From Planctomycetota bacterium (GTDB taxonomy: Bacteria > Planctomycetota > Phycisphaerae > Phycisphaerales > Phycisphaeraceae): a stretch of DNA of 64,000 nucleotides. Positions 11,064-26,811 of the stretch are shown piece by piece. The notes under the pieces are model-generated. The model was not told where the DNA came from and did not search any database. It saw only the letters and a list, made by a program, of their open reading frames with translations. The first letter of the stretch is position 1. The number at the start of each line of letters is the position of its first letter. The DNA lies in contig CP066225.1 in NCBI GenBank assembly GCA_016350165.1, forward strand, positions 1,984,001-2,048,000, given 5' to 3'. A program made the position numbers and the translations under genes.

Positions 11064-11069
11064 GGCCAT

Positions 11070-11136: not shown

Positions 11137-11170
11137 ATGCCACCTAACCGACGATTAGATGGCATCTATT
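11137..11170 (-). terminator. Terminator of the aldo/keto reductase gene
   Basis: ATGCCA/TGGCAT plus CTAA/TTAG pair around one mismatch (11137-11147 with 11155-11165). On the minus strand the hairpin is followed by TTTTTG. Its loop region is one of the CTAAY-N5-RTTAG sites. Confidence 0.7.
11144..11158. repeat. CTAAY-N5-RTTAG palindrome, site 2
   Basis: CTAAC-CGACG-ATTAG, forming the top of the terminator after the aldo/keto reductase. Confidence 0.75.
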
Positions 11171-11192
11171 ATCTCTTCATTTGTCTCCTGCC

Positions 11193-12194: not shown

Positions 12195-12741
12195 TACTTA
12201 TATCTCACATTTAACCTGTCTATTATCGCAATACCTCTATTCCTATCGGTATAAAGATACTAACTAGTCGAGCGTAATAATATGCCTCTCAACCACCTCA
12301 AAACCCGCTCACTATACAGATGAAGGGAAAACCCAAGCTTCGCCCAATACAATAATTTTCGCTGATCCGTCACTTAGTCACTTCTCGAACTTTAGTATTC
12401 CAAAAGGAATAACCCAATTTCATTGCGGTATTGTGCTCCGTCTACATGACTTTTCTTCAGAACATAAGCATATAAAACAACTCTTTTACAGTACATTTGT
12501 TACTTTCACGACCACACTCACAATGCTTAAAAACACAGCAATTGACGTTACACAAAATCTTCCATTGAATACCTCGCATCACATGAGCACACCTTCGTGC
12601 TCTTGTATTTTTTTGAATCACACACAGAGTGCCAGGCTCATAAGCTCTTCAGCAACACAACAGCAGGATATACAACCAACCACGCGTATAAGGCGCTGTA
12701 TGGATGCAACGCTATTCTGTCTTATTGTTACGGAGATGTAT
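12195..12741. other. Intergenic region before the VPTPA pair
   Basis: A frame open from 12433 is in phase with the next gene but has no SD. Its translation is Cys/Thr-rich and unlike the paralogue, so I read it as untranslated leader. The region is AT-rich with no clear hairpin. Confidence 0.4.
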
Positions 12742-13482
12742 ATGTGGCTTTTCAGACTATTACACAACAAGCACTGGAGACGCAGACCAAACAAAACAAT
12801 GGCCCTCACGGCTGCCGGTTTATCAACCATGATCGGTAGTCATGCCTATGCAGACAACGTTAACAGCGTTCTGCAGGATCAGGTTTCAAGTGGTCTCCAC
12901 TACTCAATCAGTGGCAGCTTGGACAACCTCGTCACAGTCGGTTGGGAATTTACAGCTAATTCCGATGACCTTTCAATCACCCAACTTTCAACACTCACAG
13001 GTGAAACTGGCAATACCGACTACATCACACTTTGGAACGCTGACACAAACGAACTGCTCGCACAAGTTGGCACCATCTCAGACACAGATGGTTGGCGTAC
13101 CGTTGGACTCGACAACGCAATCAGCCTCGAAGATGGCAGCAATTACGCCATCACACTCACAACAACCAACGGTAATCATTTTCGTTTCGTACGAGAAAGT
13201 TTCACCGAAGCTTCAACTGATGGAAACATCACCTACACCAACAGTATCTGGAACACCGGCTATGCCCCTTATTTCCAAGGCCCAAACGGCGTAGCACCAA
13301 TTCAGAATGCTAACAATTTCCCAGACGTCATCGGCGAATATCAATGGCTCGTTGATTTCGGTTTCGTTGATTCAAGCCAAGCTAACATCAATGAACCGAC
13401 AGCGGTCCCTACTCCCGCAGCATTTGGCATTGGCGGCCTCATGCTCGGACTCCTCACACTTCGCCGTAATAAACAAACTTAA
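12742..13482 (+). CDS. Secreted protein with VPTPA-type C-terminal sorting tail, copy 1
   Basis: The start at 12742 is set by GGAG 6 nt upstream and by alignment with copy 2, giving 246 residues. An Arg-rich N-terminus (WRRRPNK) is followed by a hydrophobic stretch ending in SHAYA, a plausible signal peptide. The body is a single beta-rich domain with the repeated-looking TLTGETGNTDYITLWNAD and EYQWLVDFGF signatures. The tail VPTPA, then a Gly/Leu-rich membrane helix, then RR is the layout of a PEP-CTERM sorting signal with Thr in place of Glu. An exosortase-like enzyme would be expected to process it (family knowledge). The domain is not recognised. It lies 276 nt upstream of copy 2. Confidence 0.82.
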   Translation: MWLFRLLHNKHWRRRPNKTMALTAAGLSTMIGSHAYADNVNSVLQDQVSSGLHYSISGSLDNLVTVGWEFTANSDDLSITQLSTLTGETGNTDYITLWNADTNELLAQVGTISDTDGWRTVGLDNAISLEDGSNYAITLTTTNGNHFRFVRESFTEASTDGNITYTNSIWNTGYAPYFQGPNGVAPIQNANNFPDVIGEYQWLVDFGFVDSSQANINEPTAVPTPAAFGIGGLMLGLLTLRRNKQT

Positions 13483-13503
13483 CCTTGAACACTTTTCCAA
13501 TCA

Positions 13504-13537
13504 CCTACATCCTCATACGTGAGGGTGTAGGTTTTTC
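13504..13537 (+). terminator. Terminator of VPTPA copy 1
   Basis: A 12-bp stem (13504-13515 with 13520-13531, one G-T pair), loop TACG, followed by five T. Confidence 0.9.
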
Positions 13538-13758
13538 TATGCGCCTTTACATCTCAATCATATCGAGGGCATTAGGGATTCGTCGGATAACAACTCGGGT
13601 TTTGAGTACTTGATTCAACACTAGCACATGCATTTGATATCCACTTGTAGTAGTAATTTAGGTCTCAGACGGATCCAAATTTCAATACTAAAAAACGCAT
13701 GCAATCCTTCAACACCATCTACCTTCATTGGTAGCCCTTTTATCGAGGAGACTCAGGT

Positions 13759-14511
13759 TTGAAATTGCTCAGAGATTTAGTCATACGACGTTCCTACGCC
13801 GAAGGCACAAAGCGCAAAATGCTCACAAGTGCCATGATGGGCGCAGCCGCTGTTTTTGCGGGTTCAAAAGCGAAAGCGTCAACAGTTGAAAGTGTACTCA
13901 AAGACCAAACAAACAGTGGCGGACACTACTCCATCAGCGGCTCAGGCGGCCTCAACACCGTCGGCTGGTCGTTCCAAGTAAACTCCGAAAACCTTGCCAT
14001 TAATGAACTCTCTACACTCACCGGTGAAAGCGGCAACAACGATCTCATCACGCTTTGGAATGCAGACACAAATGAGATACTCGCACAAGTTTGGTCTGTT
14101 GCCGACACCGATCAATGGCGCACCGTTGAACTCGACAACCTAATCGAACTTGAACAAGGCACGAACTACGGCATCACACTCACCAGTACCGATGGCGATC
14201 AATATCGATTCGTACGTGAAAGCTTCACAGAAGATTCAACCAGCGGCGACATCTCATACGGCGACAGTTACTACAACACTGTCTACGCAAACTACTACCC
14301 CGGCCCCAACGGCGTCGCACCATTCGACCGACTTTGGGACTTTCCAAATGCCATCGGCGAATATCAATGGCTCGTTGACTTCGGCTATATCGACACTAGT
14401 GCACCAACCGATCTACCCAACAACATTGCCGTACCAACTCCCGCCTCTCTCGGCATCGGCGGCCTCATGCTCGGTATCCTCACTGCCAGACGTAACCGTA
14501 AACGTGACTAA
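13759..14511 (+). CDS. Secreted protein with VPTPA-type C-terminal sorting tail, copy 2
   Basis: This starts with TTG: GAGGAG lies 8 nt upstream and no in-frame ATG fits the alignment. It has 250 residues and is a close paralogue of copy 1. A basic N-terminus leads to LTSAMMGAAAVFAGSKAKA, a likely signal peptide. The same beta domain follows, with TLTGESGNNDLITLWNAD and GEYQWLVDFGYID. The tail is VPTPASLGIGGLMLG, then more hydrophobic residues and an Arg-rich end. The identical VPTPA in both copies argues that the Thr is tolerated or preferred by the sorting machinery rather than random drift. The function of the domain is unknown. Confidence 0.84.
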   Translation: MKLLRDLVIRRSYAEGTKRKMLTSAMMGAAAVFAGSKAKASTVESVLKDQTNSGGHYSISGSGGLNTVGWSFQVNSENLAINELSTLTGESGNNDLITLWNADTNEILAQVWSVADTDQWRTVELDNLIELEQGTNYGITLTSTDGDQYRFVRESFTEDSTSGDISYGDSYYNTVYANYYPGPNGVAPFDRLWDFPNAIGEYQWLVDFGYIDTSAPTDLPNNIAVPTPASLGIGGLMLGILTARRNRKRD

Positions 14512-14522
14512 TACTCAATTAG
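14508..14522. repeat. CTAAY-N5-RTTAG palindrome, site 3
   Basis: CTAAT-ACTCA-ATTAG. Its first half supplies the TAA stop codon of the VPTPA copy 2 gene. Confidence 0.7.
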
Positions 14523-14540
14523 ACATTCTCACTCACACTG

Positions 14541-14569
14541 AAAAGCCCTCACATATTGCGAGGGCTTTT
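14541..14569. terminator. Bidirectional terminator between convergent genes
   Basis: AAAAGCCCTC (14541-14550) pairs with GAGGGCTTTT (14560-14569), loop 9 nt. The symmetric A and T ends suit both the VPTPA copy 2 gene and the AIM24 gene on the opposite strand. Confidence 0.8.
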
Positions 14570-14600
14570 GCTTTGAACCTAACGATCAACTGAACTTCAA

Positions 14601-15296
14601 CTACGACGTATATATTTCTTGGAAAGGTTGTACAACAACAAATCCAGCCCCCTCAAATTTCATTTGCAACGACTCACCCGATCCCCGCCCAAAGAATGTC
14701 TTTACAGATATATCCGTCTTCAGCTTCGGCTGCAGATTACCTGACCACGCAATGGTCGTATTTGGATCTGTAAAAACAGGCATACCCGGCTCAACAATCA
14801 GCACCATCGGATCATAATAAGATGTAATCGCCAATAACCCTTCACCCTCAAACCGCACATTAAACAAATCACCCGATAGCATCGCAACCATTTTCTTCAT
14901 CATCCGAATATCCCACTTAAGCGTTGGCTCAAACGCAAGAATATCATGCCCCGCTACATACAGTGATTCATTTCTAAGCTGCAAAATCGTGATCTTCTTA
15001 CCCAAATCCGAAAGGAACATCTTCCCCTGCCCTTGCACTTTCGTCAGCTGCGTCCCTTCATGAGACACCTTCTTTTTAAGCATCTTTCCAATACCGTGCT
15101 CTAAAATCCCTTCACGAGTAAACTTCAGCTTCCCCCGATACGCTGTCATCGACCCCATCTTAATCCAAACCATGCCATCAAGATTCACTTCCAACATACG
15201 CTGCGATTCAAGTTCAAACAAACCGTAATGCTGTTCTTTTTGTTGAGCATGCAAAACGATGTCTTCTAACGAATACTGGCTCTGGCTTTGTATCAT
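14601..15296 (-). CDS. AIM24 family protein, copy 1
   Basis: The 231-residue protein fits the AIM24 family: a beta-rich fold with GMVWIKMGSMTAYRGKLKF, a Gly/Glu region around EGTQLTKVQGQGKMFLSD, and the conserved C-terminal GRGSGESLQMKFEG followed by GFVVVQPF. The family is widespread in bacteria and near yeast mitochondrial AIM24. Its molecular role is unsettled, with links to membrane organisation and stress loci. No signal peptide or membrane helix is seen. The start has GGAG 6 nt upstream. It lies downstream of copy 2, which it closely resembles, and of a double zinc-ribbon membrane protein on the same strand. Confidence 0.82.
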   Translation of the reverse strand: MIQSQSQYSLEDIVLHAQQKEQHYGLFELESQRMLEVNLDGMVWIKMGSMTAYRGKLKFTREGILEHGIGKMLKKKVSHEGTQLTKVQGQGKMFLSDLGKKITILQLRNESLYVAGHDILAFEPTLKWDIRMMKKMVAMLSGDLFNVRFEGEGLLAITSYYDPMVLIVEPGMPVFTDPNTTIAWSGNLQPKLKTDISVKTFFGRGSGESLQMKFEGAGFVVVQPFQEIYTS

Positions 15297-15427
15297 GGCC
15301 TACTCCATATTCACACAAAATTGTATGGAGTCACGTCAGCACAACCACTAAACTCATCAAAATTTTCTTATCTTCATATCTCTTTTTATACATCAAGCTC
15401 CCATTCATGACTAAACATCCAAATCAA

Positions 15428-15453
15428 AAAAGCCCTTGTAAACAAGGGCTTTT
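15428..15453 (-). terminator. Terminator of AIM24 copy 2
   Basis: An 11-bp stem (15428-15438 with 15443-15453) with a 4-nt loop, followed on the minus strand by TTTTTT. It implies that copy 1 has its own promoter. Confidence 0.85.
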
Positions 15454-15479
15454 GCGTCTTTATATGTCTTAATTCATTA

Positions 15480-16193
15480 TCAAGATGAACTAGCTTGGAA
15501 GTACACCTCTTCATAAGGCTGCACAACCACAAAACCCGAACCTTCAAACTTCATCTGCAAAGATTCACCAGACCCACGCCCAAAGAATGTCTTCACAGAA
15601 ATATCCGTCTTAAATTCAGGCATCAAATCTCCCGACCAGGCGATCGTTGCATTCGGATCGGTAATCACCGGACGTCCCGGCTCGACCAGCAATGTCAGCG
15701 GTTCATAATGTGATGTAATCGCCAACAAACCCGTCCCTTCCAAACGCACATTAAACAAACCACCCGACAGCATCGCTGCCATTTTCTTCATCAACTTGAT
15801 ATCCCAATCAAGCGTTGGTTCAAACGCAAGCACATCATTACCATTCACAAAAATTGCTTCATCATTCAGCTGCAAAATCGAAATCTTCTTACCTTCATCA
15901 GCAAGATATAACTGTCCCTGCCCCTCTGCCTTCGTCAGTTGCGTCCCCTCACCAGATACCGCTTTCTTCAGCAATTTACCAATGCCATGCTCCAAAATCT
16001 TCTCTCGTGTAAACTTGATTTCACCACGATACGAGATCATCGATCCCATCTTCGTCCAGATCATGCTATCAAGATTCACCTCGAGAATACGTTCACTCTC
16101 AAGTTCAAACAAACCTTGCCCGCGATCTTTCTGTCGCGTCTTTTCAACAAACTCACTAAGCGAATAACGATTATCTATCTGAGACATATTCAT
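15480..16193 (-). CDS. AIM24 family protein, copy 2
   Basis: This 237-residue paralogue of the next gene downstream keeps nearly every family landmark: SMIWTKMGSMISYRGEIKF, EGTQLTKAEGQGQLYLAD, TDISVKTFFGRGSGESLQ and GSGFVVVQPYEE. AAGGA lies before the ATG. The stop of the zinc-ribbon protein gene is 18 nt upstream, and a CTAAC...ATTAG palindrome fills that gap, so the zinc-ribbon gene and this one probably share a transcript. The two copies differ mainly at the N-terminus and C-terminal end, consistent with a recent duplication. The role is unknown; a membrane-stress link is an inference from the family. Confidence 0.82.
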   Translation of the reverse strand: MNMSQIDNRYSLSEFVEKTRQKDRGQGLFELESERILEVNLDSMIWTKMGSMISYRGEIKFTREKILEHGIGKLLKKAVSGEGTQLTKAEGQGQLYLADEGKKISILQLNDEAIFVNGNDVLAFEPTLDWDIKLMKKMAAMLSGGLFNVRLEGTGLLAITSHYEPLTLLVEPGRPVITDPNATIAWSGDLMPEFKTDISVKTFFGRGSGESLQMKFEGSGFVVVQPYEEVYFQASSS

Positions 16194-16200
16194 TCCTTAT

Positions 16201-16215
16201 CTAACACTTGATTAG
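16201..16215. repeat. CTAAY-N5-RTTAG palindrome, site 4
   Basis: CTAAC-ACTTG-ATTAG, in the 18-nt gap between the zinc-ribbon gene and AIM24 copy 2. Its right half overlaps the zinc-ribbon stop codon. Confidence 0.75.
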
Positions 16216-16757
16216 CTTAATTTTTGACCACATTGATCACAGAACTTTGACCCCAACCCATTACTCACTCCACAACCTGAGCAAACAATATCTTTCAGCG
16301 ATGTGCCACACTGATCACAAAATTTAGATCCCTCCTCATTACCCGCATCACACTGCGGACAATTCACTTCATTTTCATCCACCTTCACACCACCCGCGCC
16401 CTCAGCAAAACCCTCTGAAATCGCAGACGCAAACGCCTTCACCCCCGGCTTCGTGCGCTTCCCCATATAGTTCACAGTATCCGAAGCAACCGGCGCCATC
16501 TCCGATGCCTGATACCGCATGATCGCACCCATATAACCAGCCTTGCTCATCCCCACACCAATCCCCAACAACGGCATCCCCACAAACCCCATCCAGAATA
16601 GCTTCGGCATACCTCCGCCACCAAAAGCACTGAAAAAATCAACCAATGCGATAATCAAAAAAATCCCACCAATAACGATAAAAATAGGCCCCACTACACG
16701 TAACAAATCTCGCATTGGCCGATGCCCACTCCCGGAAAGCTTCTCATAGTCATTCAT
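16212..16757 (-). CDS. Membrane protein with C-terminal double zinc ribbon
   Basis: The protein has about 181 residues from ATG 16757. An ATG at 16766 and a longer frame to 16832 lack an SD. Two hydrophobic segments lie near residues 20-65 (PIFIVIGGIFLIIALVDFF and a Gly-rich second helix). A linker follows, then two four-Cys ribbons: CPQC with CDQC, and CSGC with CDQC. This double zinc ribbon (DZR-like) faces the cytoplasm if the helices form a hairpin. Zinc ribbons next to AIM24 genes hint at a common complex at the membrane (inference). TACAAT lies 7 nt before ATG 16757, the leaderless layout seen elsewhere here. Confidence 0.75.
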   Translation of the reverse strand: MNDYEKLSGSGHRPMRDLLRVVGPIFIVIGGIFLIIALVDFFSAFGGGGMPKLFWMGFVGMPLLGIGVGMSKAGYMGAIMRYQASEMAPVASDTVNYMGKRTKPGVKAFASAISEGFAEGAGGVKVDENEVNCPQCDAGNEEGSKFCDQCGTSLKDIVCSGCGVSNGLGSKFCDQCGQKLS

Positions 16758-16764
16758 ACTCACC

Positions 16765-16770
16765 ATTGTA
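16765..16770 (-). promoter_or_regulatory. -10 box of a possible leaderless promoter (double zinc ribbon)
   Basis: TACAAT on the minus strand, 7 nt before ATG 16757. An imperfect GGTGAG sits between them, too close to the ATG for normal SD spacing. Confidence 0.35.
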
Positions 16771-16899
16771 ATAACTACACGGCTCACCGAGTAAGAATAT
16801 TTCTTTCTTAAAATGCAAAAATGAGAGAGCAAAAATCACAAATCCTTATTTAAAATACCAACATCACATAAATACGCCCTATTACAAAGGATTTGTCAC

Positions 16900-18258
16900 A
16901 TGCAACGTGTAACGATCTTCCTTATTTGTCTACTTTGTACCTTCATTTCATCCAAACTCTTCGCACTGGACATCATCGAATTCGGAGCCAAAGGTGATGG
17001 CAAAACCGATAACACTCAAGCCTTTCAGGATGCAATTGATGCATGTGCCCAAGCAGGTGGCGGCATCATCAACATCCCCACCGGCCAATATCTCATCAAG
17101 TCTCATCTCACCCTCCAACACAACGTGACCCTCCAAGGTCAATGGGTCGCACCACCAACCATCTCAAGACTTGATTCTTCAAAAACTGAATTGCCTTACC
17201 TCGATCAAACACCACTCGCTGGCACAGTTCTCCTCGCAGTCGAAAATGAAAATCAACCCGACAATCAACCTTTCATCACGATGAAAACCAACTCAACTCT
17301 CAAAGGTCTAACCATCTATTACCCCAATCAAGGCCACAACAACAAAGTCGTCGAATATCCATGGACCATTGCCTCCGGTGCAGGCGATAACATGTCCATC
17401 ATCAACGTACTACTCTTAAACCCATACAAAGGTGTTGACTTCGGCAGCCGCGCAACCGGACGACACTACATCAACGGCCTCTACGGCGCACCTATTTTTA
17501 AAGGACTTTATGTCGATCGCTGCCTCGACGTTGGACGCATCAACAACGTTCACTTCTGGCCCTTCTGGCGTGAAGCACCTGACACTATCAAAAACTTCAC
17601 ACGCCAAAACGGCGAAGCATTCATCTTCGGCCGCACCGATTGGCAATACGTAGACAACTGCTTCGCCATCTTCTACAAAACTGGCTTCAAATTCATTGAA
17701 GGCAAAGAAAAGCCACCCTACCACGGTGGCGGCAATGTTCTCCTCAACAAAAGCGGCGGCGACATGTGCCAATACGCAGTACTCGTTGAGCAAGTACAAG
17801 GTCATTCAGGCGTAAGTTTCACCAACTCAAACATCTTCGGCACCGTCCTCATCAAACCCGAAAACCACGGCCCCGTTAAATTCACCGGCTGCAGCTTCTT
17901 CGGCAGCGATAGTTCAAATGAAGACACACCCACCGCATCAATCCAATCCGCAGGGCACGGCCCCGTCATGATCAGCAACAGCCACTTCATCAAACTCTCA
18001 ACCGCACACCGTGGCAAACCATACATCATTGCCGACTCAGGTCGTATCTCCGTCATCGGCTGCACTTTCGCTGACATGAACACACCCGATGAACGCAGCC
18101 CATCACACATCGTCCTCAAAACATACGTCAAAGCAGCACGCATCGTCGCAAACGAATTTTTTGATCCAATGCGTATTCAAAACCATGCAGAAGGTGCAAC
18201 AGTTATCGAAAGCAACCTCAGTGGCACACAACACATCAATATGCCTCTCAAAGAATAG
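16900..18258 (+). CDS. Secreted pectate-lyase-fold protein, copy 1
   Basis: The 452-residue protein starts 8 nt after AAAGGA and opens with a typical signal peptide (MQRVTIFLICLLCTFISSKLFA). Residues 23-70 have the Pectate_lyase_3/GH28-related opening DIIEFGAKGDGKTDNTQAFQ with AGGGIINIPTGQY. The rest is right-handed beta-helix sequence rich in Asn, Gly and short hydrophobic repeats, ending with VIESNLSG. Such proteins bind or cleave acidic polysaccharides outside the cytoplasm. No catalytic set can be assigned with certainty. Its near-twin lies downstream. Codons are strongly C-ending, unlike the second half of the twin. Confidence 0.85.
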   Translation: MQRVTIFLICLLCTFISSKLFALDIIEFGAKGDGKTDNTQAFQDAIDACAQAGGGIINIPTGQYLIKSHLTLQHNVTLQGQWVAPPTISRLDSSKTELPYLDQTPLAGTVLLAVENENQPDNQPFITMKTNSTLKGLTIYYPNQGHNNKVVEYPWTIASGAGDNMSIINVLLLNPYKGVDFGSRATGRHYINGLYGAPIFKGLYVDRCLDVGRINNVHFWPFWREAPDTIKNFTRQNGEAFIFGRTDWQYVDNCFAIFYKTGFKFIEGKEKPPYHGGGNVLLNKSGGDMCQYAVLVEQVQGHSGVSFTNSNIFGTVLIKPENHGPVKFTGCSFFGSDSSNEDTPTASIQSAGHGPVMISNSHFIKLSTAHRGKPYIIADSGRISVIGCTFADMNTPDERSPSHIVLKTYVKAARIVANEFFDPMRIQNHAEGATVIESNLSGTQHINMPLKE

Positions 18259-18278
18259 AATCGCTACAAACCAAACCC

Positions 18279-18311
18279 AAAACACGAGCATTTTCATCGC
18301 TCGTGTTTTAA
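18279..18311 (+). terminator. Terminator of pectate-lyase-fold copy 1
   Basis: An 11-bp stem AAAACACGAGC/GCTCGTGTTTT (18279-18289 with 18299-18309), loop 9 nt, T-rich tail. Confidence 0.85.
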
Positions 18312-18483
18312 TATTCATATCTCAATCAGCACCGCACTAAAAGAATAAAAATAACGACAAAATTACCATTTTAAATGAGCGTGTATTCGATAAAATCATG
18401 CAGTCATTTTCACAACCTCAAATATGTGAGATGGCATCCGTAAATTAGTATTATCCCCGCACATTTAAATTAGAAAGCCTGTT

Positions 18484-19827
18484 ATGCAACAGCAAAACGA
18501 AAACTGTATTCCAACCGCTAACGAATACATTCCACACGCATTTTCCATCAACGTGATCGACTACGGTGCCAAAGGCAATGCAACCCATGACGATACACAA
18601 GCATTCCAAAACGCAATCGACTACTGCCACAACATCGGCGGCGGTGTCGTTCGTGTCCCTGCAGGTCAGTATCTGATTGCAACACATCTTTACCTCAAAG
18701 AAAACGTTACGATCGAAGGTGTTTGGCATGCACCACCGACCAATTCGCGTCACGACAAAATTAGTACCGAAGGGGTTCTCAAAGGTAAAAAGCCTTATGG
18801 TGGCAGTGTGTTACTCGCAGTCGAAGGTGAAGGTAATCCGGAAGGTACGCCGTTCATTACGATGCAGAACAACACGACGGTCAAGGGTTTATCAATCTAT
18901 TACCCCGAGCAGGGCCGCGATAATTCTGTCATCGAATTCCCGTGGACATTCCGCACCGAAAAAGGTTACAACCAATCACTCATCAATCTGCTGCTGATCA
19001 ATCCATACATGGCGGTTGACTTCGGTACACACGAAACACAACGCCACTACGTCAGTGGTGTGTTTGGATCGCCGATCTACAAGGGTATCGAAGTCGATCA
19101 GGGTTACGACATCGGCAGAATTACGAACGTACACTTCTGGCCGTTCTGGGATGAAATGCCTGAAGCAGTGAAAGAGTACACCTACAACAAGGGGATCGCA
19201 TTCTCTTTCGCACGTACCGACTGGCAATACGTCGACAACTGCTTCGCGATCTTTTATCACATCGGATTCAACTTCGTAGATGGTCGTTTACCAGGTGGTT
19301 ACGGCGGCGGTGGTAATGTACTACTCGACAAATGCGGCGGTGATATCTGTCATTACGCAATGGTTGTGGAACAAAGTCAGGTGCACTCGGGCGTGAGTGT
19401 GAGCAATTCAAATTTGTTTGGCACCGTTAAAATTACACCAACCAATGTCGGACCTGTGAAGTTTACGGGGTGCAGCTTCTTTGGTACGGATGTTTCAAAC
19501 ACGTGGACGAAGACAGGTTGTGTGAAAACCGCGAGTCAGAACGTGGTGATGTTTGGGAATTGCACGTTTACGAGGTTATCACCTGAACATCGTGATAAGC
19601 CATATGTTATTGCGGAGGAGGGACGCATCTCGATTAATGGGTGCACGTTTATGGATGAATGCGTTGATGTTGAACAGGGTGTGGATCACATTGTTCTGAA
19701 ACCATCTGTACGATCGGCGCGGATTATTGGGAACGAGTTTTATAACCCGATGCTGATTACGAATAATGCGAAAGGTGCAGTGTTGATTGAACATAATATT
19801 GGGGATACGGCTGCGATTGAAATTTAG
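18484..19827 (+). CDS. Pectate-lyase-fold protein, copy 2, without signal peptide
   Basis: This 447-residue paralogue of copy 1 begins directly with a polar stretch and then SINVIDYGAKGNATHDDTQAF, so no secretion signal is visible. The beta-helix matches copy 1 almost block by block (IYYPEQGRDNSVIEFPW, RTDWQYVDNCFAIFYH, GPVKFTGCSFFG). It may act in the cytoplasm or be exported another way. The SD is weak (AGAAAG). Codon choice changes inside the gene: the first half prefers C-ending codons like copy 1, while after about 19100 G- and T-ending codons dominate, even where both copies encode the same peptide. Confidence 0.83.
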   Translation: MQQQNENCIPTANEYIPHAFSINVIDYGAKGNATHDDTQAFQNAIDYCHNIGGGVVRVPAGQYLIATHLYLKENVTIEGVWHAPPTNSRHDKISTEGVLKGKKPYGGSVLLAVEGEGNPEGTPFITMQNNTTVKGLSIYYPEQGRDNSVIEFPWTFRTEKGYNQSLINLLLINPYMAVDFGTHETQRHYVSGVFGSPIYKGIEVDQGYDIGRITNVHFWPFWDEMPEAVKEYTYNKGIAFSFARTDWQYVDNCFAIFYHIGFNFVDGRLPGGYGGGGNVLLDKCGGDICHYAMVVEQSQVHSGVSVSNSNLFGTVKITPTNVGPVKFTGCSFFGTDVSNTWTKTGCVKTASQNVVMFGNCTFTRLSPEHRDKPYVIAEEGRISINGCTFMDECVDVEQGVDHIVLKPSVRSARIIGNEFYNPMLITNNAKGAVLIEHNIGDTAAIEI

Positions 19828-19855
19828 ATTGATCTTGTTTTGAAATTAGATGATG

Positions 19856-19887
19856 AAAGCTCGGCGCTTTGGTGCTGAGCTTTTTTT
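19856..19887 (+). terminator. Terminator of pectate-lyase-fold copy 2
   Basis: AAAGCTCGGCGC pairs with GTGCTGAGCTTT (two G-T pairs), followed by a run of T, 29 nt past the stop. Confidence 0.85.
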
Positions 19888-19900
19888 GTTTGAGATTCGG

Positions 19901-19918
19901 TTTTGTGCGCGCGTTTTG
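19901..19918 (+). repeat. TTTYGTGCGCRCG repeat, copy 1
   Basis: TTTTGTGCGCGCGTTTTG, just after the terminator of pectate-lyase-fold copy 2. Confidence 0.5.
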
Positions 19919-20199
19919 TTTGGTAGTTAGTTTTTGAGATGGTCTTAAATTGATGGTTTAAAATGCGATCTATGCGCGTATTAGTCGGATTTGTGAGCGA
20001 TATTGTTAAGTTAAATCGTAAGCAAAGGAGTTATGAATGTTGCGGCGCGCTTTTATGCGCACGGATGTGAAAGTTTATTGATTTTCGGTGACTTTCCCGT
20101 AGTAAGAAATGGGCGGTTTTAACTAGAAATGAAGTAGAAATGATTAGTTTTGTAGTGTTTTTGGTTAGAAATGCGTCGTATTTTGTGGGGCGATTGCGT

Positions 20200-20217
20200 G
20201 TTTGTGCGCGCGATTTG
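20200..20217 (+). repeat. TTTYGTGCGCRCG repeat, copy 2
   Basis: GTTTGTGCGCGCGATTTG, same orientation as copy 1. Confidence 0.5.
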
Positions 20218-20348
20218 ATTGGTTGTTGGTTTTGGTATGCGGTTTGCTTGTGTTGGGTTATTTTGGCTGGGTCCTCTACGAGGCCGGACCGGCCATTGAG
20301 GAGGAGAGCAAAAGATTTGGTTATGGATGGGGTGGCGGGATGAGGCTT

Positions 20349-20369
20349 CCGCGGAGCGTAGCTCCGCGG
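20349..20369. repeat. REP-like GC-rich hairpin
   Basis: CCGCGGAGC and its exact complement flank a 3-nt GTA loop, giving a perfect 9-bp stem with no T-tract. It resembles dispersed extragenic palindromes found in planctomycete genomes (family knowledge, copy number not checked). Confidence 0.6.
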
Positions 20370-20383
20370 CTAATGGTGAATTG

Positions 20384-20402
20384 TTACACTAAATCGTATC
20401 GT
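20384..20402 (+). repeat. Direct repeat 1 upstream of the KAP gene
   Basis: TTACACTAAATCGTATCGT, the first of three copies of TTNCACTNAANCGTATCGT. Confidence 0.7.
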
Positions 20403-20427
20403 TGGTTGGGTATGTAAGGTTGAGTTG

Positions 20428-20446
20428 TTTCACTGAAACGTATCGT
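20428..20446 (+). repeat. Direct repeat 2 upstream of the KAP gene
   Basis: TTTCACTGAAACGTATCGT, 44 nt after copy 1 (start to start). Confidence 0.7.
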
Positions 20447-20478
20447 CTAATGAAAACACGTGCGTGTCGGTGGTGTCT

Positions 20479-20497
20479 TTTCACTTAAGCGTATCGT
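20479..20497 (+). repeat. Direct repeat 3 upstream of the KAP gene
   Basis: TTTCACTTAAGCGTATCGT, 51 nt after copy 2 and 97 nt before the KAP start codon. Spacing of about 4-5 helical turns suits a regulatory array. Confidence 0.7.
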
Positions 20498-20593
20498 TTG
20501 TTAAAGAAAGAAAAGGTGGGTGGATTTTGGATTGGGTTGTAGAATGAGTGGCGTGGCAAAATCCTATCAGCAATGGGTGCAAAGGAAATATTG

Positions 20594-22006
20594 ATGTCGA
20601 AAGATATGTTTAGCAAAGAAGATGATCATCTGAATCGTGGTGATTGTGCGACGAATTTAACGCGGCTGATTCAAAGTCAAAGTGAGATTAAGGGGGAAGA
20701 AGGGGATGGGTTTGTGATGACGGTGAGTGCGCCGTGGGGGTTTGGGAAGACCTATTTTATTCGGCATATTTGGGGGCCGATGCTTTTAGATGAGGGGTAC
20801 AAGTGTTTGTATTACAACGCTTGGGAACATGATTTTGCGGATGATGCGTTTTTGTCTTTTATTCGTGAGATGGGTTTTTTAATTGACCAACTGGAGCATA
20901 AACAAACAAGTGACCCAATTGTTATGCGTAATACAAGGATGCAAACACTTGAAGCAGTTGGGAAATGGGATGTGGTTAAAAATAAGGCGGCTGATTTTTT
21001 AACGCGTAAAGGTGTGGTTCAATCTTTGACGACATTAGCGGGTTTGGCATTAGAGGCGAAAGGACTTCAGGGGGCGGGTGCATTTAGTGCGGCGATTGGT
21101 GGAGCGACCGATGCTGCTACTCAAACTGTTTTGAATCCTACGATTGGTCGTGAAGAGATCATGAAGCAGATGGAGTTAGATCAGGAACAGAATACGCGAT
21201 GTTTGATTGATGCATTCAAAGAGGCGGTGGGTGAGTATGTGGAAGTGATTGGTGAGGGGAAGCCGATTGTTGTGTTTATTGATGAGTTGGATCGGTGTAA
21301 GCCTACGTTTTCGATTGAGTTGTTAGAAGCGATTAAGCATTTGTTTGCTGTTAAGAATGTTGTGTTTGTGCTTGGGGTTGATCGGCAGCGATTGGGTGAT
21401 GCGGCATCGCATTTGATTGGGTTTTCGAAGGATAGTGCAGAAGGATATTTACGAAGATTTGTAGACATCGATTTTCATCTACCAGAAGTAAATTCGACAG
21501 CAATTTGGAAATATGAACTTGAGAAATTCACTGCTGATTTACAACAGACGAAAGCTATATCAAAGAATATTTCTAGTTATGTAGAATTAGCCCATATTTT
21601 GCAACTAAGTGTACGCGATCAACTACATTGCATAAGACAAATCAAACTAATACAGTCGATGTTTCTTTCTACATATAGTGTTAAACTTTCAATCACATTA
21701 TATCTACTGCTATTGATGGCCTATGATCAGAAATTTGCGACAAAATGGGCAACCGAAGGGTTTAAGGGCAAATGCAGCCAAACTAAAGAATTATTCTTCA
21801 ATTTTGCTCACAAAAATGCTGTCAATTCCAACGACCAACATATCTCCAAATTACGTGCAGCTTGTCACCATATTAATGAGGCCCTCAAGTGGATGTTACC
21901 TGATGATGAAATACCAATCGGCAATTCAAGTGCTACAAATCAAGTACTGGATTACTGCGTATTTGCATCTTCTATTGATAGTTCATACCAGAATATTACA
22001 TTCTAA
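20594..22006 (+). CDS. KAP-family P-loop NTPase
   Basis: The protein has 470 residues from ATG 20594, where AAGGA lies 9 nt upstream; the in-frame ATG at 20573 has no SD. The Walker A is APWGFGKT (residues 46-53) and the Walker B is VVFIDELDRC with Asp230, followed by FSIELLEAIKHLF, which is the KAP pattern. Between them residues 120-190 are Ala/Gly-rich and weakly hydrophobic, where other KAP proteins carry membrane helices. The C-terminal 170 residues are not recognised. KAP proteins include phage-exclusion factors such as PifA (known), so a defence role is possible. The 3' part (after about 21480) is clearly more AT-rich than its surroundings, suggesting a mosaic or acquired gene. Confidence 0.87.
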   Translation: MSKDMFSKEDDHLNRGDCATNLTRLIQSQSEIKGEEGDGFVMTVSAPWGFGKTYFIRHIWGPMLLDEGYKCLYYNAWEHDFADDAFLSFIREMGFLIDQLEHKQTSDPIVMRNTRMQTLEAVGKWDVVKNKAADFLTRKGVVQSLTTLAGLALEAKGLQGAGAFSAAIGGATDAATQTVLNPTIGREEIMKQMELDQEQNTRCLIDAFKEAVGEYVEVIGEGKPIVVFIDELDRCKPTFSIELLEAIKHLFAVKNVVFVLGVDRQRLGDAASHLIGFSKDSAEGYLRRFVDIDFHLPEVNSTAIWKYELEKFTADLQQTKAISKNISSYVELAHILQLSVRDQLHCIRQIKLIQSMFLSTYSVKLSITLYLLLLMAYDQKFATKWATEGFKGKCSQTKELFFNFAHKNAVNSNDQHISKLRAACHHINEALKWMLPDDEIPIGNSSATNQVLDYCVFASSIDSSYQNITF

Positions 22007-22051
22007 GATACAACCATTCAGTTTATATTTTTATCTAATACATCTTGAACA

Positions 22052-22086
22052 TAAAAAAAGCAGCCCGTAGTGAGCTGCCTTTTTTT
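22052..22086. terminator. Bidirectional terminator between KAP gene and pgk
   Basis: A run of seven A, then GCAGC...GCTGC, then C and seven T, so a T-tract follows the stem on either strand. Confidence 0.85.
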
Positions 22087-22099
22087 GTTTTATATTTAA

Positions 22100-22114
22100 C
22101 TAATCGTTGATTAG
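22100..22114. repeat. CTAAY-N5-RTTAG palindrome, site 5
   Basis: CTAAT-CGTTG-ATTAG, intergenic, 12 nt past the pgk stop codon. The symmetry extends to ACTAATC/GATTAGT. Confidence 0.8.
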
Positions 22115-22125
22115 TTGGGCGAGAT

Positions 22126-23316
22126 TTATTTCTCGTCGAGAAGTTCGACTGCTGCGAACTTTTTGCCTTCGAGCATTGCCAAAGAAGCACCGCCGCCGGT
22201 TGAGACGTGGGTGACTTTGTCTGCATAGCCGAGTTGTTTGACGGCTGCTGCTGAGTCGCCGCCGCCGATGATGGAGACTGCGTCTGATTCAGCGATTGCT
22301 TGTGCAACTGCTTTTGTGCCTTCATCGAATGGAGGCATTTCGAAGACGCCCATTGGGCCGTTCCATACAACAGTCTTGGATTCGCGAACGATGTCAGCGA
22401 AAAGTTTTGCTGATTTAGGACCGATGTCGAAACCTTGGAAGCCGTCGGAGATATCGTTGTCGACGATTTCTTTGTTGCAGTCAGAGGAGAATGCGTCGCC
22501 GCAGTTTGAGTCGATTGGGAGAACGATTTTGTCGCCACCCTTTTCGAGCATTTCTTTGGCTTTCTCTACGAAGTCAGGCTCGACGAGTGAGTTGCCGACT
22601 TTGATACCTTTTGCGAGGAAGAAGGTGTAAGCCATTGCGCCACCGATGATGATCTTGTCGCAGATGTTGATGAGGTTTTCGATGACGACGATCTTGTCAG
22701 ACACTTTAGCGCCGCCGAGGATGGCAACGAAAGGACGGCCTGGCGTGGCGATGGTGTCAGCGAGGAACTTGATTTCTTTTTCAACGAGGAAACCGCAAAC
22801 GGTTGGCTTGCCAGCAGCTTTCATTGCAGATGGGACAGCAACCATTGATGCGTGTTCACGGTGGCATGTGCCGAAGGCGTCGTTGACGTAGACGTCAGCC
22901 ATGTCAGCGATTGCTTTGCCGAACTCTGCGTTGCCTTTCTTTTCTTCCTTGGCGAAGCGGAGGTTTTCGAGGACGAGAACCTGACCTGGGAGGAGGTTGG
23001 CAGCTTTGGTCTTGGCATCGTCGCCGACGGTGTCGGTGGCCATGAGCACTTCGTTACCATCGAGGATTTGGCCGAGACGCGCGGCAGCTGGAGCGAGTGA
23101 GAAGGCAGGTTCGATGCCTTCACCCTTAGGGCGGCCGAGGTGTGACATGAGGATGACGGCGGCACCGTTATCGAGGGCAGCTTTGATGGTAGGGAGAGCC
23201 ATCTGGATACGACGGTCGTCGGTAATTTTGCCTTCGTTGAGGGGGACGTTGAAGTCGACACGGATGAGGACTTTCTTGTCAGCGACATCGACGTCAGCGA
23301 TGGTTTTCTTCGCCAT
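22126..23316 (-). CDS. pgk: Phosphoglycerate kinase
   Basis: This glycolytic enzyme transfers the acyl phosphate of 1,3-bisphosphoglycerate to ADP. Length is 396 residues, typical for bacteria. [11 protein letters not shown] near the N-terminus, [32 protein letters not shown] in the hinge region, and the C-terminal [13 protein letters not shown] and [12 protein letters not shown] nucleotide site are all present. The start is ATG 23316 with TTGGAG 9 nt upstream. A TTG at 23331 lies inside that SD and is rejected. It is monocistronic and divergent from ygfZ. Although coded on the minus strand, the coding strand has fewer G than C, against the usual purine bias. Confidence 0.96.
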
Positions 23317-23491
23317 GTTCTTACACTCCAAAGATTTAGGGGTGGTTGTGTTTTTGGATTATCAACAATAGTAGCCGGTTGGAAGGGGATTCCAAGCGGA
23401 TTGACGGGTCTTATTATATCGAAAAATTGAGGTGAGGTTAGGAGGGGGATGAGGCGGGGTGCGTGGAGGATGTGGGGATCGGGAATGGGAG

Positions 23492-23497
23492 TATAAT
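23492..23497 (+). promoter_or_regulatory. -10 box of a predicted leaderless promoter (ygfZ)
   Basis: TATAAT, a perfect consensus, followed by 7 nt and ATG 23505. No -35 is clear. A GGGAG 13 nt from the ATG is too far for a normal SD. Confidence 0.5.
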
Positions 23498-23504
23498 CTT
23501 GGAC

Positions 23505-24713
23505 ATGAATGAGAATCACGAAAATGGCGGCATGTTGGGCGGGGCTGATGAGGCGAATCCACTGATGCGGGTGCAGGAACAGATGGGTGGGATGTTCATT
23601 GCGTGGGGAGGTGAAGAGGGTGAGTTTACGGGGACGCCTTTGGTGGAATCGTTTGATGAGTACTATGCGGAGTATGCGGCGATCCGGCAGCGGGTTGGTG
23701 TGCTGCACTTGCCACAGAAGGCGGTGGTGAAGGTGAAGGGGAGTGATGCGAGTGATTTTCTGCATCGAATGATTACGAATGATGTGAATGGTTTGAAGGT
23801 GGGTGAGTCTAATCATGCGCTGCTACTAAATTTGAAGGGGCGGATTGATGTGGACATGATTGTGTTGAAGGTGAGTGATGATGCGATTTGGGTGGAGATG
23901 GATCAGCATAATGTGGGGCAGTTTATTACATCGCTTGAGAAGATGGTGTTTGTTGAGGATGTCGTGTTTGAGGATTGCAGCGGCGAGTTAGACCATGTTG
24001 CGCTGCATGGGCCTGCAAGTGTGAAGTTGGTTGAGAAGTTGGGGAGTGATTTGAGCGGGATTGAAGAGTGGGCTAATCGTGAGATAGAAATTTGTGGGAC
24101 GAAGTGTGTTGTATATCGAAGGGATGATGCGGGAAGCTTGGGGTTGCATGTGTTTCTGCCACGACGTGAGCTTGCGATGATTTATGGAGAGATGGTGAGA
24201 GCGAGTGGATGGGAAGCTGGGGCGGAGGTGGATGCGGAGTGGGCTGAGAAGAGGAGAGAAGGATTGAGGGGACGGCCGATTGGTTGGATGGCTTATAACA
24301 CGGCGAGGATTGAGGCGGGGACGCCGATCTGGATGATTGATTATGCGACAGATTCGCTACCTGCAGAAACGGGGATACTTGATGAGGTGGTGTCGTTTAC
24401 GAAGGGATGTTATCTGGGGCAAGAAATTGTGGCGAGGATGCATAGTCGTGGGCATCCTAAGCGCGTATTAGTTGGTGTGAAGTTTGAGACTGAAAAAATA
24501 GCGGTTGCAGGGAGTGGCGTTATTGTTGAGAAAGATGGAAAAGAGGATGTTGTGGGTGGGCTGACGAGTTCGACGGCGTCGCCGCTACTGGGTGGTAAGT
24601 CGATTGGGCTTGCTGTGATGAAATGGGGGAAACATCGGAAGGGTGTGAAGGTGAAGGTTGCTGCGGAAGATGTGGTTGTGGATGGTGAAGTGGGGAAACT
24701 TGGGGTGATGTAG
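23505..24713 (+). CDS. ygfZ: YgfZ/GcvT-family folate-binding protein
   Basis: The 402-residue protein has the aminomethyltransferase fold of YgfZ. VLHLPQKAVVKVKGSDASDFLHRMITNDV opens the folate-binding part (given here as a block of two motifs, LPQKAVVKVKG and DFLHRMITND). RIEAGTPIW lies in the middle, and the diagnostic KGCYLGQEIVARMH with its reactive Cys is at about residues 299-312. YgfZ proteins use tetrahydrofolate and support iron-sulfur enzymes such as MiaB (known from E. coli). The extra N-terminal 40 residues are Glu/Gly-rich. The start is not certain: a GTG at 23463 is in frame, but TATAAT 7 nt before ATG 23505 favours the ATG on a leaderless mRNA. It is divergent from pgk. Confidence 0.88.
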   Translation: MNENHENGGMLGGADEANPLMRVQEQMGGMFIAWGGEEGEFTGTPLVESFDEYYAEYAAIRQRVGVLHLPQKAVVKVKGSDASDFLHRMITNDVNGLKVGESNHALLLNLKGRIDVDMIVLKVSDDAIWVEMDQHNVGQFITSLEKMVFVEDVVFEDCSGELDHVALHGPASVKLVEKLGSDLSGIEEWANREIEICGTKCVVYRRDDAGSLGLHVFLPRRELAMIYGEMVRASGWEAGAEVDAEWAEKRREGLRGRPIGWMAYNTARIEAGTPIWMIDYATDSLPAETGILDEVVSFTKGCYLGQEIVARMHSRGHPKRVLVGVKFETEKIAVAGSGVIVEKDGKEDVVGGLTSSTASPLLGGKSIGLAVMKWGKHRKGVKVKVAAEDVVVDGEVGKLGVM

Positions 24714-24739
24714 CAATTAGAGTTTAAACAGGTCTAAAC

Positions 24740-24778
24740 AAAACACCCGCCTAATCATCGATTAGGCGGGTGTTTTTG
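24740..24778. terminator. Bidirectional terminator between ygfZ and the chemoreceptor gene
   Basis: A perfect 17-bp stem (24740-24756 with 24760-24776), 3-nt loop, T-rich on both strands. Its tip is a CTAAY-N5-RTTAG site. Confidence 0.92.
24751..24765. repeat. CTAAY-N5-RTTAG palindrome, site 6
   Basis: CTAAT-CATCG-ATTAG at the tip of the terminator shared by ygfZ and the chemoreceptor gene. Confidence 0.8.
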
Positions 24779-24801
24779 CAGTTGTGTGTACAACAGACGA
24801 A

Positions 24802-26811
24802 TTATGAGGCGATGCGGAATTGGCCGATGAGATGCTGGAGCTCTTCGGATTTCTGAGAGAGTTGTGTTGCAGCGGAGGCGGCTTGGTTTGCGCCTTCGGT
24901 GTTTTGAGAGATCACGGCTGAAATACCGGTGATATTACTGGAGATTTGCTGGGCAGCGGCGGATTGCTGTTCGGCTGCTGCTGCGATGTTTTGGATCATG
25001 CCTGCGACATCATCGGAACCTGTAACGATGGTTGCGAGTGCTTCGCCGGCTTGTTGAGCTTGAGTGACGCCGGACTCGACGGTTTGTTTGGAGTTGTTCA
25101 TCTGCTCGACGGCTTGACCAGTTTTGGTCTGAATGACGTCGATGAGTGAGTTGATATTGTCGGTGGCTTGAGTCGTGCGATCAGCGAGTTTGCGAACTTC
25201 GTCGGCAACGACGGCGAAACCGCGGCCATGCTCACCTGCACGTGCTGCTTCGATTGCTGCGTTGAGTGCGAGGAGGTTGGTTTGATCTGCAATATCGTTG
25301 ATGACGAGGATGATTTCGCCAATCTTGTCGGACTGCTCACCAAGTTCATTAATGACGTTACTAACGGTGTCGGTGTCTGCGGCGATTTGCTGAATGCCTT
25401 CGACGGATGACTGAACGATTTCGCCGCCTTCTTCTGCGGTTGAACGAGCGTCGGTTGCAGAATTGTTTGCGTTTGCAGCTTTCTGAGCGACTTCAACGAC
25501 GGATGAAGACATTTCTTCGATTGCGGTTGAGACTTGTGTGACCTGATCGGATTGTTCGACCATGCCCTGGGCCATTTCTTCGGCTGAGGCTGCGATTTCG
25601 GTTGCGGCTGATGCTACGTCATGGGTTGCGTGTGAAACTTCTGAAACAATGTTGTGTACTTTCTCAACAAATGCATTGAACCATGAGCCGAGTTCACCGA
25701 TTTCATCTTTGGAGTGTATTTCGACACGTTTGGTGAGATCGCCTTCACCCTGTGCGATGTCTTTGATGCGTTCAACGATTTCCTGAATTGGCTTGGTGAT
25801 ACCGCGAGTGATGAGGTAAGCGATTGCGCCGCCGAGTAGGAGGGCGAATGCAATGCCGCCGATGATGAGGGTTGATGCTCGAGAAACGGTGTCTCGTGTT
25901 GAGGTCGTGACTTCATGAGAGATGATGGTTGCATCGTTGACAATATCTGCTGCGAGAACGAGCATTTCTCCGCCGATTTCGCCGCCGAGTGTGTATGCAT
26001 CTGCGAGTTCGTCCCAAACCTTATTGGTTTCAATTAATGCTTCTTTGTATTCGGCACCGGCGGCAAGAACGTTGTTGAGCAAATCAAGGTCTGACTGTTT
26101 AGAAGTCATTGGAATGATGACATTGACGCTGTTGTTGAAGACATCGAACTTTTTGATCGCTTGCTTCATGAGTTTATCATCGCGGTTGACTTGCGCAAGG
26201 AGGTAATCAACAGAGATTGCATTGCCTGCATCGATGACATCGTTGATGAGTTTGATTTTTTGATTGCGTTGCTGAACTTCGACAGTGTTGTCGGCTTTTT
26301 CAGCAGCGAGTGCCATCTTTTCGTGTTGCGGACGAAGGTATTGACTGCAGAGATCTATGACTATGTTAGATGCTTTGCCCATATCGACGCGTAGGGCAAC
26401 GATGCGGTTGTAGCTATCTGAGATTGCATTGATTTGAGTGTCGTACTGGTCTGAGAGTACGAGCATTTTCTCGACGTCGTTTGAGACGTCTTCCAAGTTG
26501 TACTTAGTAGCGACACCTGAGATTTCATTGATTGCCACTTTGGCGGCTTTGATTTCTTCGTGTGCGGTATCGACAAAAGCGATGTCGCCGGTTTTATCGA
26601 AGCGGAAGACATTGAGTCGCGCGTTGAGAAAACCTGAGCGGACGCGAGCGGTTGCGTCGGTGAGGGGTGCAACTTCTCCTTCAATTTTGTTGACACTGTG
26701 ATTGATGTAACTCATCTGCAAGATGGCAGTGATGCCGAGGATTGCAGTGAGGGCGAGGACTAATGAGAATCCTATCGCCATTTTGACGCTAATTTTAAAT
26801 CGATTAAGCAT
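24802..26811 (-). CDS. Methyl-accepting chemotaxis protein
   Basis: The 669-residue receptor has the classic order: membrane helix 1 (about 10-32), a helical periplasmic sensor of the four-helix-bundle type (about 35-305), helix 2 (about 312-335), a HAMP domain (about 336-390, [14 protein letters not shown]) and a long coiled-coil signalling domain. The hairpin tip has [20 protein letters not shown] and [23 protein letters not shown], the most conserved receptor sequence, which contacts CheA and CheW. Gln/Glu pairs suitable for methylation flank it. There is no C-terminal pentapeptide for CheR tethering. GGAGGA precedes the ATG. The ligand cannot be read. A second receptor ends at 63606. Confidence 0.95.

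What the first reader, a model, noticed from the sequence alone, without database searches (positions are those of the whole stretch)
18484..19827. Skew switch inside a pectate-lyase-fold gene, visible against its twin
The first half of copy 2 has C-ending codons like copy 1; after about 19100 it uses G- and T-ending codons. Both copies encode GPVKFTGCSFFG: copy 1 writes it with CCC, TTC, ACC and GGC, copy 2 with CCT, TTT, ACG and GGG. The protein is intact, so neither inversion nor replacement of a whole gene explains the change.
Basis: seen in the sequence. Interest (0 to 1): 0.7.

Follow-up and report, generated by a model that had tools for sequence, protein, structure and literature searches.

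The report
Bacterial chromosome with many origin-like sites
The odd change of spelling inside this gene is one of many sharp strand-bias switches found roughly every 30,000 bases along this bacterium's chromosome, nearly all beside the same small DNA element, which suggests that the chromosome is copied from many starting points, whereas bacteria normally use one.

Summary
In detail: copy 2 (18484-19827) loses C-ending and gains G/T-ending codons along its length; copy 1 does not; the protein is intact. It is not a property of the gene. The genome matches Poriferisphaera heterotrophicis ZRK32 by exact length. In 0.86 Mb of it and 0.4 Mb of its congener, GC skew is a sawtooth: a sharp rise (about -0.4 to +0.35) roughly every 30 kb, then a slow fall, largely regardless of gene strand. 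An unprompted k-mer search around 34 rises found GYGCGCACAAA, the core of a dispersed ~440-bp intergenic element. In 20 further stretches picked by motif, 18 had a rise of at least 0.3 within 2.5 kb (background 29%). A sawtooth drawn from motif positions alone correlates 0.79 with the skew. Skew stays near -0.4 up to the element and turns over within ~3 kb on its 3' side; copy 2 lies in such a zone. Best explanation: the elements are directional secondary replication origins (about 150-170 extrapolated here) added to a main oriC near 2.51 Mb. Inversions, recombination and transcription fit worse. Replication was not measured; one rRNA gene and two motif-rich relatives with weak skew do not fit easily.

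The parts
16900..18258 (+). Copy 1, pectate-lyase-like protein (PF12708), wholly inside the negative-skew domain
18484..19827 (+). Copy 2, pectate-lyase-like protein (PF12708), spans the skew turnover zone
18631..19291 (.). Interval of the -/+ GC-skew switch (best point 19051)
19898..20336 (-). Origin-like element 1 (~440 bp, in the gap between copy 2 and the next gene); its 3' side points at copy 2
   Evidence: nhmmer family in both species; sequence
20201..20211 (-). Motif GCGCGCACAAA, first copy of element 1
20106..20176 (-). Array of CATTTCTAACC-like repeats (borders by eye); over the elements this stretch has ~10.4-bp periodicity
   Evidence: sequence; autocorrelation
20080..20105 (-). 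Box CTACGGGAAAGTCACCGAAAATC (borders by eye), recurring in several other elements
19902..19912 (-). Motif GCGCGCACAAA, last copy of element 1 (299 bp from the first; 149-150 bp is the commonest spacing)
45411..45571 (.). Second -/+ skew switch in the window (best point 45511, intergenic)
46085..46191 (-). Two motif copies (46085-46095, 46181-46191) beside the second switch
46280..46419 (-). Origin-like element 2 (partial profile match)
9741..19280 (.). Negative-skew domain (-0.29)
19281..30180 (.). Positive-skew domain (+0.27)
30181..33260 (.). Gradual + to - crossing (termination-like zone)
33261..45500 (.). Negative-skew domain (-0.23)
45501..59240 (.). Positive-skew domain (+0.27)

Best explanation
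The chromosome of Poriferisphaera carries a dispersed family of ~440-bp intergenic elements (typically two or three GYGCGCACAAA-type motifs ~149 bp apart, with a helically phased repeat array). Each acts, or acted over evolutionary time, as a secondary, directional replication origin. A helicase loaded at the element moves off its 3' side. The leading strand of the opposite fork starts from early lagging-strand primers laid within ~3 kb on that side, and forks then run both ways until they meet forks from the neighbouring elements. Strand-biased mutation therefore turns over just 3' of each element and decays towards the next one, giving the sawtooth. Copy 2 lies in that turnover zone, so its codons change from lagging-type to leading-type spelling. 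A main oriC near 2.51 Mb adds a weak chromosome-wide trend. SHOWN: the sawtooth, the element family, their association, the polarity and the offset. INFERRED: that the asymmetry comes from replication, that elements initiate it, and the primer model.
For: Sawtooth in both Poriferisphaera genomes: rises of at least 0.5 outnumber falls of at least 0.5 by 26 to 1 in 864 kb + 400 kb; increment skewness 1.2 and 1.5 against 0.11 in one 50-kb stretch of E. coli K-12. Direction as at bacterial origins (recalled): G and T excess after the rise; GC and TA skew correlate 0.56 and 0.49. Position outweighs transcription: in the outermost skew bins plus-strand fourfold GC skew is -0.80/-0.74 and +0.69/+0.83 for plus/minus genes of G000, -0.76/-0.63 and +0.62/+0.85 in G001; intergenic DNA follows too. 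Genes lean to the inferred leading strand (375 of 608, p=9e-9). Motif found without prior: 29 of 30 motif clusters lie within 2.5 kb of a rise (null mean 4.2, max 11, 2000 trials) and 29 of 34 rises have a cluster within 3.5 kb; 31 of 34 counting profile hits. Further stretches picked by motif: 18 of 20 (background 28.9%, p=2e-8), switch on the 3' side in 17 of 20. Whole genome: 241 motifs against 3 for the reversed control. Linear sawtooth from motif positions: r=0.79 in each species (circular-shift null max 0.28 and 0.43). Oriented mean of 47 elements: turnover on the 3' side. Another genus, G021: skew higher after the motif in 9 of 10 stretches. Weak global V (-0.080 left, +0.104 right of 2.51 Mb); the largest jump (0.98) and the only close pair of DnaA-like boxes in 624 kb are at 2.511 Mb.
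Against: No replication, copy-number or fork-direction data; skew is an indirect, historical record. The rises lack DnaA boxes (TTWTNCACA 1 within 500 bp, 2.2 expected; 6 within 1 kb, 4.3 expected), and no GC dip was seen at the switches. Gene co-orientation is only 62%; tRNAs 8 of 13. Gene strand has some effect: in weakly skewed regions of G001 fourfold skew was -0.43 in plus and +0.34 in minus genes, and codon positions 1+2 depend on gene strand. One of two 16S genes (215929-217437, minus) lies 3.4 kb right of a + motif (212537), where it would be head-on; the other (720216-721724, plus) is on the co-directional side of the motif at 709403; neither region was read. In G006 (50 motifs) and G005 (28) skew is weak. 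In the 20-site test, 2 fell just short (0.27, 0.29), 3 had the switch on the 5' side or at the motif, and one counted as 3' lay 5.5 kb away. Three of 34 rises have no recognised element, and one of 30 clusters has no rise. The r values come from the blocks in which the motif was found.
Confidence: 0.72

Rival explanations
1. Divergent long-range transcription: each element is a bidirectional promoter hub, and transcription-linked mutation over ~10-15 kb on each side makes the skew, as at divergent strand-switch regions of trypanosomatids (recalled).
For: Would give the same sign of skew on both sides; genes lean to the matching strand (375 of 608).
Against: In the outermost positive bins fourfold skew is stronger in genes pointing the other way (+0.83 minus, +0.69 plus in G000), and 233 of 608 genes oppose the domain. 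No transcript data were examined. The window's element gave no Rfam match.
Confidence: 0.08
2. Inversions or recombination in a single-origin chromosome, with the elements as recombination sites, so that blocks with opposite skew alternate; copy 2 would be a chimera of two paralogues.
For: Skew blocks alternate; elements are repeats, and many motif sites listed for G006 and G015 lie at contig ends.
Against: An inversion makes one sharp rise and one sharp fall; rises of at least 0.5 outnumber such falls 26 to 1. Turnover is gradual and one-sided. Copy 2 matches copy 1 about evenly.
Confidence: 0.04
3. Recombination-dependent initiation: elements attract breaks or D-loops from which forks start, so they are origin-like but not licensed origins.
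For: Same fork geometry; motifs are directional, as Chi-type sites are (recalled); 3' offset.
Against: The element is long, with phased repeats, more like an initiator-binding site. Simple end resection would give the opposite sign of skew (reasoning, not tested).
Confidence: 0.1
4. The elements were origins in the past but are silent now; skew is a fossil.
For: Skew integrates over long times; element copies in Poriferisphaera differ much from one another; G006 and G005 have motifs with little skew.
Against: Exact motifs persist at 241 places, and the oriented polarity is precise.
Confidence: 0.06

Closest known systems
Skew N-domains ('factory roof') at replication origins of human chromosomes (recalled; PMC9303276 seen in search listings only)
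   Same: Sharp rise at the origin, near-linear fall to the next
   Different: Here a bacterium, ~30 kb instead of about 1 Mb (recalled), and a defined sequence element at the rises
Single DnaA-dependent bacterial oriC; putative double oriCs (Gao 2015, PMC4403523, part 1 of 2 read)
   Same: Skew changes from - to + at the origin; a candidate of this type lies at 2.511 Mb
   Different: Dispersed elements show no DnaA-box enrichment and number ~150-170 by extrapolation; Gao writes that for bacteria there was then no evidence of two functional origins on one chromosome
Archaeal multi-origin chromosomes (Haloarcula hispanica, PMC3936714, search listing only)
   Same: Several origins on one prokaryotic chromosome
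   Different: A few origins with their own initiator genes (recalled); here a repeated short element (genes next to elements were not surveyed)
Iteron and ColE1-type plasmid origins (recalled)
   Same: Repeated protein-binding boxes in helical phase; directional start
   Different: The window's element has no match in the plasmid or phage collections at E 0.01; chromosomal and dispersed

Membership tests
Bacterial oriC (DnaA type) | GC skew turns from - to + at the site | tested here: met
Bacterial oriC (DnaA type) | Clustered DnaA boxes | tested here: not met
   TTATCCACA 0 within 1 kb of rises (0.3 expected); TTWTNCACA 1 within 500 bp (2.2 expected), 6 within 1 kb (4.3 expected). The 2.511-Mb site has one close pair
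Bacterial oriC (DnaA type) | AT-rich unwinding region | tested here: inconclusive
   no GC dip in the mean profile around switches, but it was not centred on elements; an AT-rich stretch was seen by eye at 2.511 Mb, other elements not compared
Bacterial oriC (DnaA type) | Next to dnaA, one per chromosome | tested here: not met
   241 motif copies genome-wide; dnaA genes at 2498075 and 2246839
Multi-origin chromosome (eukaryotic or archaeal kind) | Sawtooth skew with repeated sharp rises | tested here: met
Multi-origin chromosome (eukaryotic or archaeal kind) | Common sequence element at the rises | tested here: met
Multi-origin chromosome (eukaryotic or archaeal kind) | Replication shown to start at the sites | not testable with these tools
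   needs fork-direction or copy-number data
Multi-origin chromosome (eukaryotic or archaeal kind) | ORC/Cdc6-type initiator | not tested
   no search made
Non-coding RNA gene or riboswitch | Rfam match | tested here: not met
   at gathering thresholds only a tRNA in the window
Non-coding RNA gene or riboswitch | Conserved RNA fold | tested here: inconclusive
   23 elements, 568 columns, consensus energy -1.6 (shuffled columns 0.0) and -9.6 on the other strand (no control run): very weak
Transposable element (MITE-like) | Terminal inverted repeats, transposase, target duplications | not tested
   patchy copy number between congeners is compatible

The most novel reading that the evidence does not exclude
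Poriferisphaera and some relatives routinely replicate their chromosome from on the order of a hundred sequence-defined, directional origins (~150 in P. heterotrophicis), the first natural many-origin chromosome in Bacteria. The origins spread as a repeat family and may use a new initiator, for example the second DnaA, whose DNA-reading helix differs from the usual one (GRKTHSTV instead of GGRDHTTV).
Probability: 0.6. Interest if true: 0.97.

Novelty: categorically new. Interest (0 to 1): 0.92.

Why it matters
One origin per chromosome is treated as the norm for bacteria. A chromosome with an origin-like element every ~30 kb would show that the many-origin plan of eukaryotes also arose in a bacterium. 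It would raise how initiation is licensed without DnaA boxes, and it provides a natural map (element orientation, turnover zone, termination zones) for testing how strand-biased mutation follows fork direction. Two cultured strains make it directly testable.

Tried and rejected
Inversion, gene replacement or chimera. Transcription. DnaA boxes at the rises. RNA element (the fold test is weak rather than clean). Plasmid or phage source of the element (no match at E 0.01). The second DnaA as a marker of element-bearing genomes: two or more DnaA matches occur in 37 of 41 genomes, so it does not discriminate. Synteny of elements between the two species: underpowered, 13 reciprocal best hits among the held pieces. 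tRNA orientation: 8 of 13, uninformative. Orthologues of copy 2: none close in 40 relatives. A first motif pattern missed the commonest form and gave 16 of 34; corrected. G005 and G006 did not show strong jumps.

Rows dropped or limits: the lists are capped, only their counts are whole. The 20 test sites were picked by me from the capped list (17 of 20 below 1.7 Mb, most with two or three motifs), not at random. In one search, L128 and L164 (mixed orientation) were left out of pooled profiles, and only 5 of 10 G006 and 2 of 5 G015 stretches had DNA on both sides. In one search, 49 hits were merged to 47 elements. In one search, two very short stretches (L052, L085) were not used, and some relatives rest on 4-10 bins.

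Full report
WHAT WAS CHECKED. Copies 1 and 2 are adjacent intact paralogues with a pectate-lyase-like domain (PF12708). The codon switch in copy 2 is real (second half G3/C3 60/51 against 39/81 in the first half, p=0.0014; copy 1 unchanged, p=0.19), the quoted codons are right, and protein identity to copy 1 does not change at the switch. The change is gradual, about 18.6 to 19.9 kb.

GENOME. The window is 1984001-2048000 of a 5,234,020-bp chromosome. That is the exact length given for Poriferisphaera heterotrophicis ZRK32 (PMC10945688, passages read). The congener G001 (4,291,168 bp) matches P. corsica KS4 (PMC7783415, passages read). Identification rests on length and kinship.

THE SAWTOOTH. 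GC skew alternates in domains of about 10-15 kb. In 624 contiguous kb there are 22 rises of at least 0.3 between 3-kb flanks (17 of at least 0.5) and 14 falls of at least 0.3 (1 of at least 0.5); median spacing of the 20 rises of at least 0.4 is 30 kb. G001 shows 9 rises in 400 kb, median spacing 36 kb (profile of its first 200 kb). The mean G000 profile goes from about -0.4 to +0.35 within 1-2 kb and decays to zero over ~14 kb. Root-mean-square 2-kb skew is 0.33 and 0.27, against 0.05 in one 50-kb stretch of E. coli K-12 and 0.03-0.12 in 15 sampled relatives with fewer than 25 motif copies (4-20 bins each).

LARGELY NOT TRANSCRIPTION. In strongly skewed regions fourfold-site GC skew on the plus strand follows position for genes on either strand (-0.80/-0.74 and +0.69/+0.83 for plus/minus genes in G000; -0.76/-0.63 and +0.62/+0.85 in G001). 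Gene strand has a smaller effect, visible in weakly skewed regions (G001: -0.43 plus, +0.34 minus) and at codon positions 1+2. Intergenic DNA follows the domain. Genes are mildly biased to the G-rich strand (375 of 608). Genes were called with a simple home-made ORF caller.

THE ELEMENT. K-mers enriched within 600 bp of 34 rises of at least 0.4 in both species led to GYGCGCACAAA. Its clusters lie within 2.5 kb of a rise in 29 of 30 cases (null mean 4.2, max 11); the exception is in the 20-kb block without a detected rise. The window's copy (19898-20336) belongs to a family of ~440-bp intergenic elements found by nhmmer in both species. Genome-wide there are 241 motifs against 3 for the reversed control. 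In 47 elements the commonest motif spacing is 149-150 bp (16 pairs), and the stretch after the first motif shows autocorrelation peaks at 10-11, 21, 31 and 41-42 bp (0.32-0.36 against a background maximum of 0.30).

TEST ON FURTHER SEQUENCE. Before reading them I listed 20 motif sites elsewhere in the chromosome (note), picked from a capped list. Eighteen of 20 had a rise of at least 0.3 within 2.5 kb (misses 0.27 and 0.29; background 28.9% of positions). The switch was on the 3' side in 17 of 20, median +1.29 kb; one of these 17 lay 5.5 kb away. A straight-line sawtooth drawn only from motif positions, with a fixed 1.2-kb shift, correlates 0.790 with observed skew over 579 bins of G000 and 0.792 over 356 bins of G001; without the shift 0.737 and 0.789. 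Circular shifts of 5 kb or more give at most 0.30 and 0.44. These blocks include those in which the motif was found.

POLARITY. Aligned on the centres of 47 elements in one orientation, skew stays near -0.35 to -0.4 up to the element, begins to change just past its 3' end, crosses zero near +1.4 kb and levels at about +0.27 by 3 kb. This one-sided zone is about the length of one or two bacterial Okazaki fragments (recalled). I read it as the opposite leading strand starting from early lagging-strand primers of a helicase that leaves on the 3' side; this is inference.

MAIN ORIGIN. Mean skew of the held stretches is -0.080 left and +0.104 right of 2.51 Mb (right side: five stretches, 180 kb, one of them negative). 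The largest jump (0.98) lies at a 2.8-kb gap between called genes at about 2.5088-2.5116 Mb that holds an element, the only close pair of DnaA-like boxes in 624 kb (two boxes with one mismatch, 0.6 expected), and an AT-rich stretch; a dnaA gene lies about 12 kb from the boxes. So a normal main oriC may coexist with the dispersed elements.

SPREAD. In the 51 genomes of the family search the motif is enriched in G000 (241 against 3 reversed), G001 (145/5), G053 (95/3), G018 (52/13), G006 (50/2), G015 (39/2), G021 (33/0), G005 (28/2) and G047 (16/2), less so in G059 (15/4), G052 (12/0) and G057 (12/3), with large differences between congeners (G053 95, G052 12, G008 10); G011 (23/31) is not enriched. 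In 248 genomes drawn from the class, some others show excesses, for example G150 37/9, G140 30/4, G129 26/3, G083 21/3. Skew after the motif exceeds skew before it in 9 of 10 stretches of G021 (two by about 0.6, two by 0.35, the rest less; 10 stretches chosen from its 33 motif hits), 4 of 5 of G006, 2 of 2 of G015 and 6 of 9 of G005, G005 and G006 weakly. Many listed G006 and G015 motif sites sit at contig ends, as expected of near-identical copies; recent spread with little time for skew would fit but was not tested. By density, P. heterotrophicis would have ~150 (18 clusters in 624 kb) to ~170 (20 rises) sites and P. corsica ~90 (8 clusters, 9 rises in 400 kb); this is extrapolation.

LITERATURE. 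Searches for Poriferisphaera with skew, Phycisphaerae with replication origin, sawtooth GC skew in bacteria (no paper), N-domains with bacteria, multiple origins and the motif letters returned no paper that, in the listings or passages I saw, reports this pattern or motif. The listings count one 'GC skew' in the ZRK32 paper, which the search of its main text did not show; it may be a figure label. The library holds open-licence papers only. [quoted passage not shown] Of SkewDB (PMC8941118) and SkewIT (PMC7717575) only passages were read; a word search of each main text found no 'planctomycet'.

VERDICT. The pattern and its tie to the element are established in the sequence examined; the replication reading is the best fit but unmeasured. 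Counter-evidence is listed under the best explanation, notably a 16S gene that would be head-on to its nearest element and weak skew in G006 and G005.

Noticed in passing
G000 1967441-1982340 (outside the window): A 15-kb domain with GC skew of -0.62, reaching -0.7 in single kilobases.
   Followed up: no
G000 2246239-2247879, 2497697-2499130: Two DnaA genes; the second has a changed DNA-reading helix. Two or more DnaA matches occur in 37 of 41 genomes.
   Followed up: partly
window 20573-22006: KAP-family P-loop NTPase directly beside element 1.
   Followed up: no
window 14601-15296 and 15480-16193: Two similar adjacent ORFs on the minus strand; the first is AIM24-like (PF01987), the second alike by eye only.
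   Followed up: no
window ~20270-20302; G000 ~2509285-2509306: A short stretch with GGTCC and GGACC arms (possible hairpin) next to the element; GGTCC occurs near 12 of 47 elements.
   Followed up: no
G083 contigs C53, C104, C114, C498: The same 11-mer in inverted pairs 357-359 bp apart in another family of the class, perhaps a different repeat.
   Followed up: no
G053: Elements often made of two TTTGTGCGCACAAA palindromes 110-113 bp apart, many copies, while congeners have few.
   Followed up: partly
window 44791-44801: A motif copy inside the coding sequence of a GH38 alpha-mannosidase-like gene, 0.7 kb from the second switch; may be chance.
   Followed up: no
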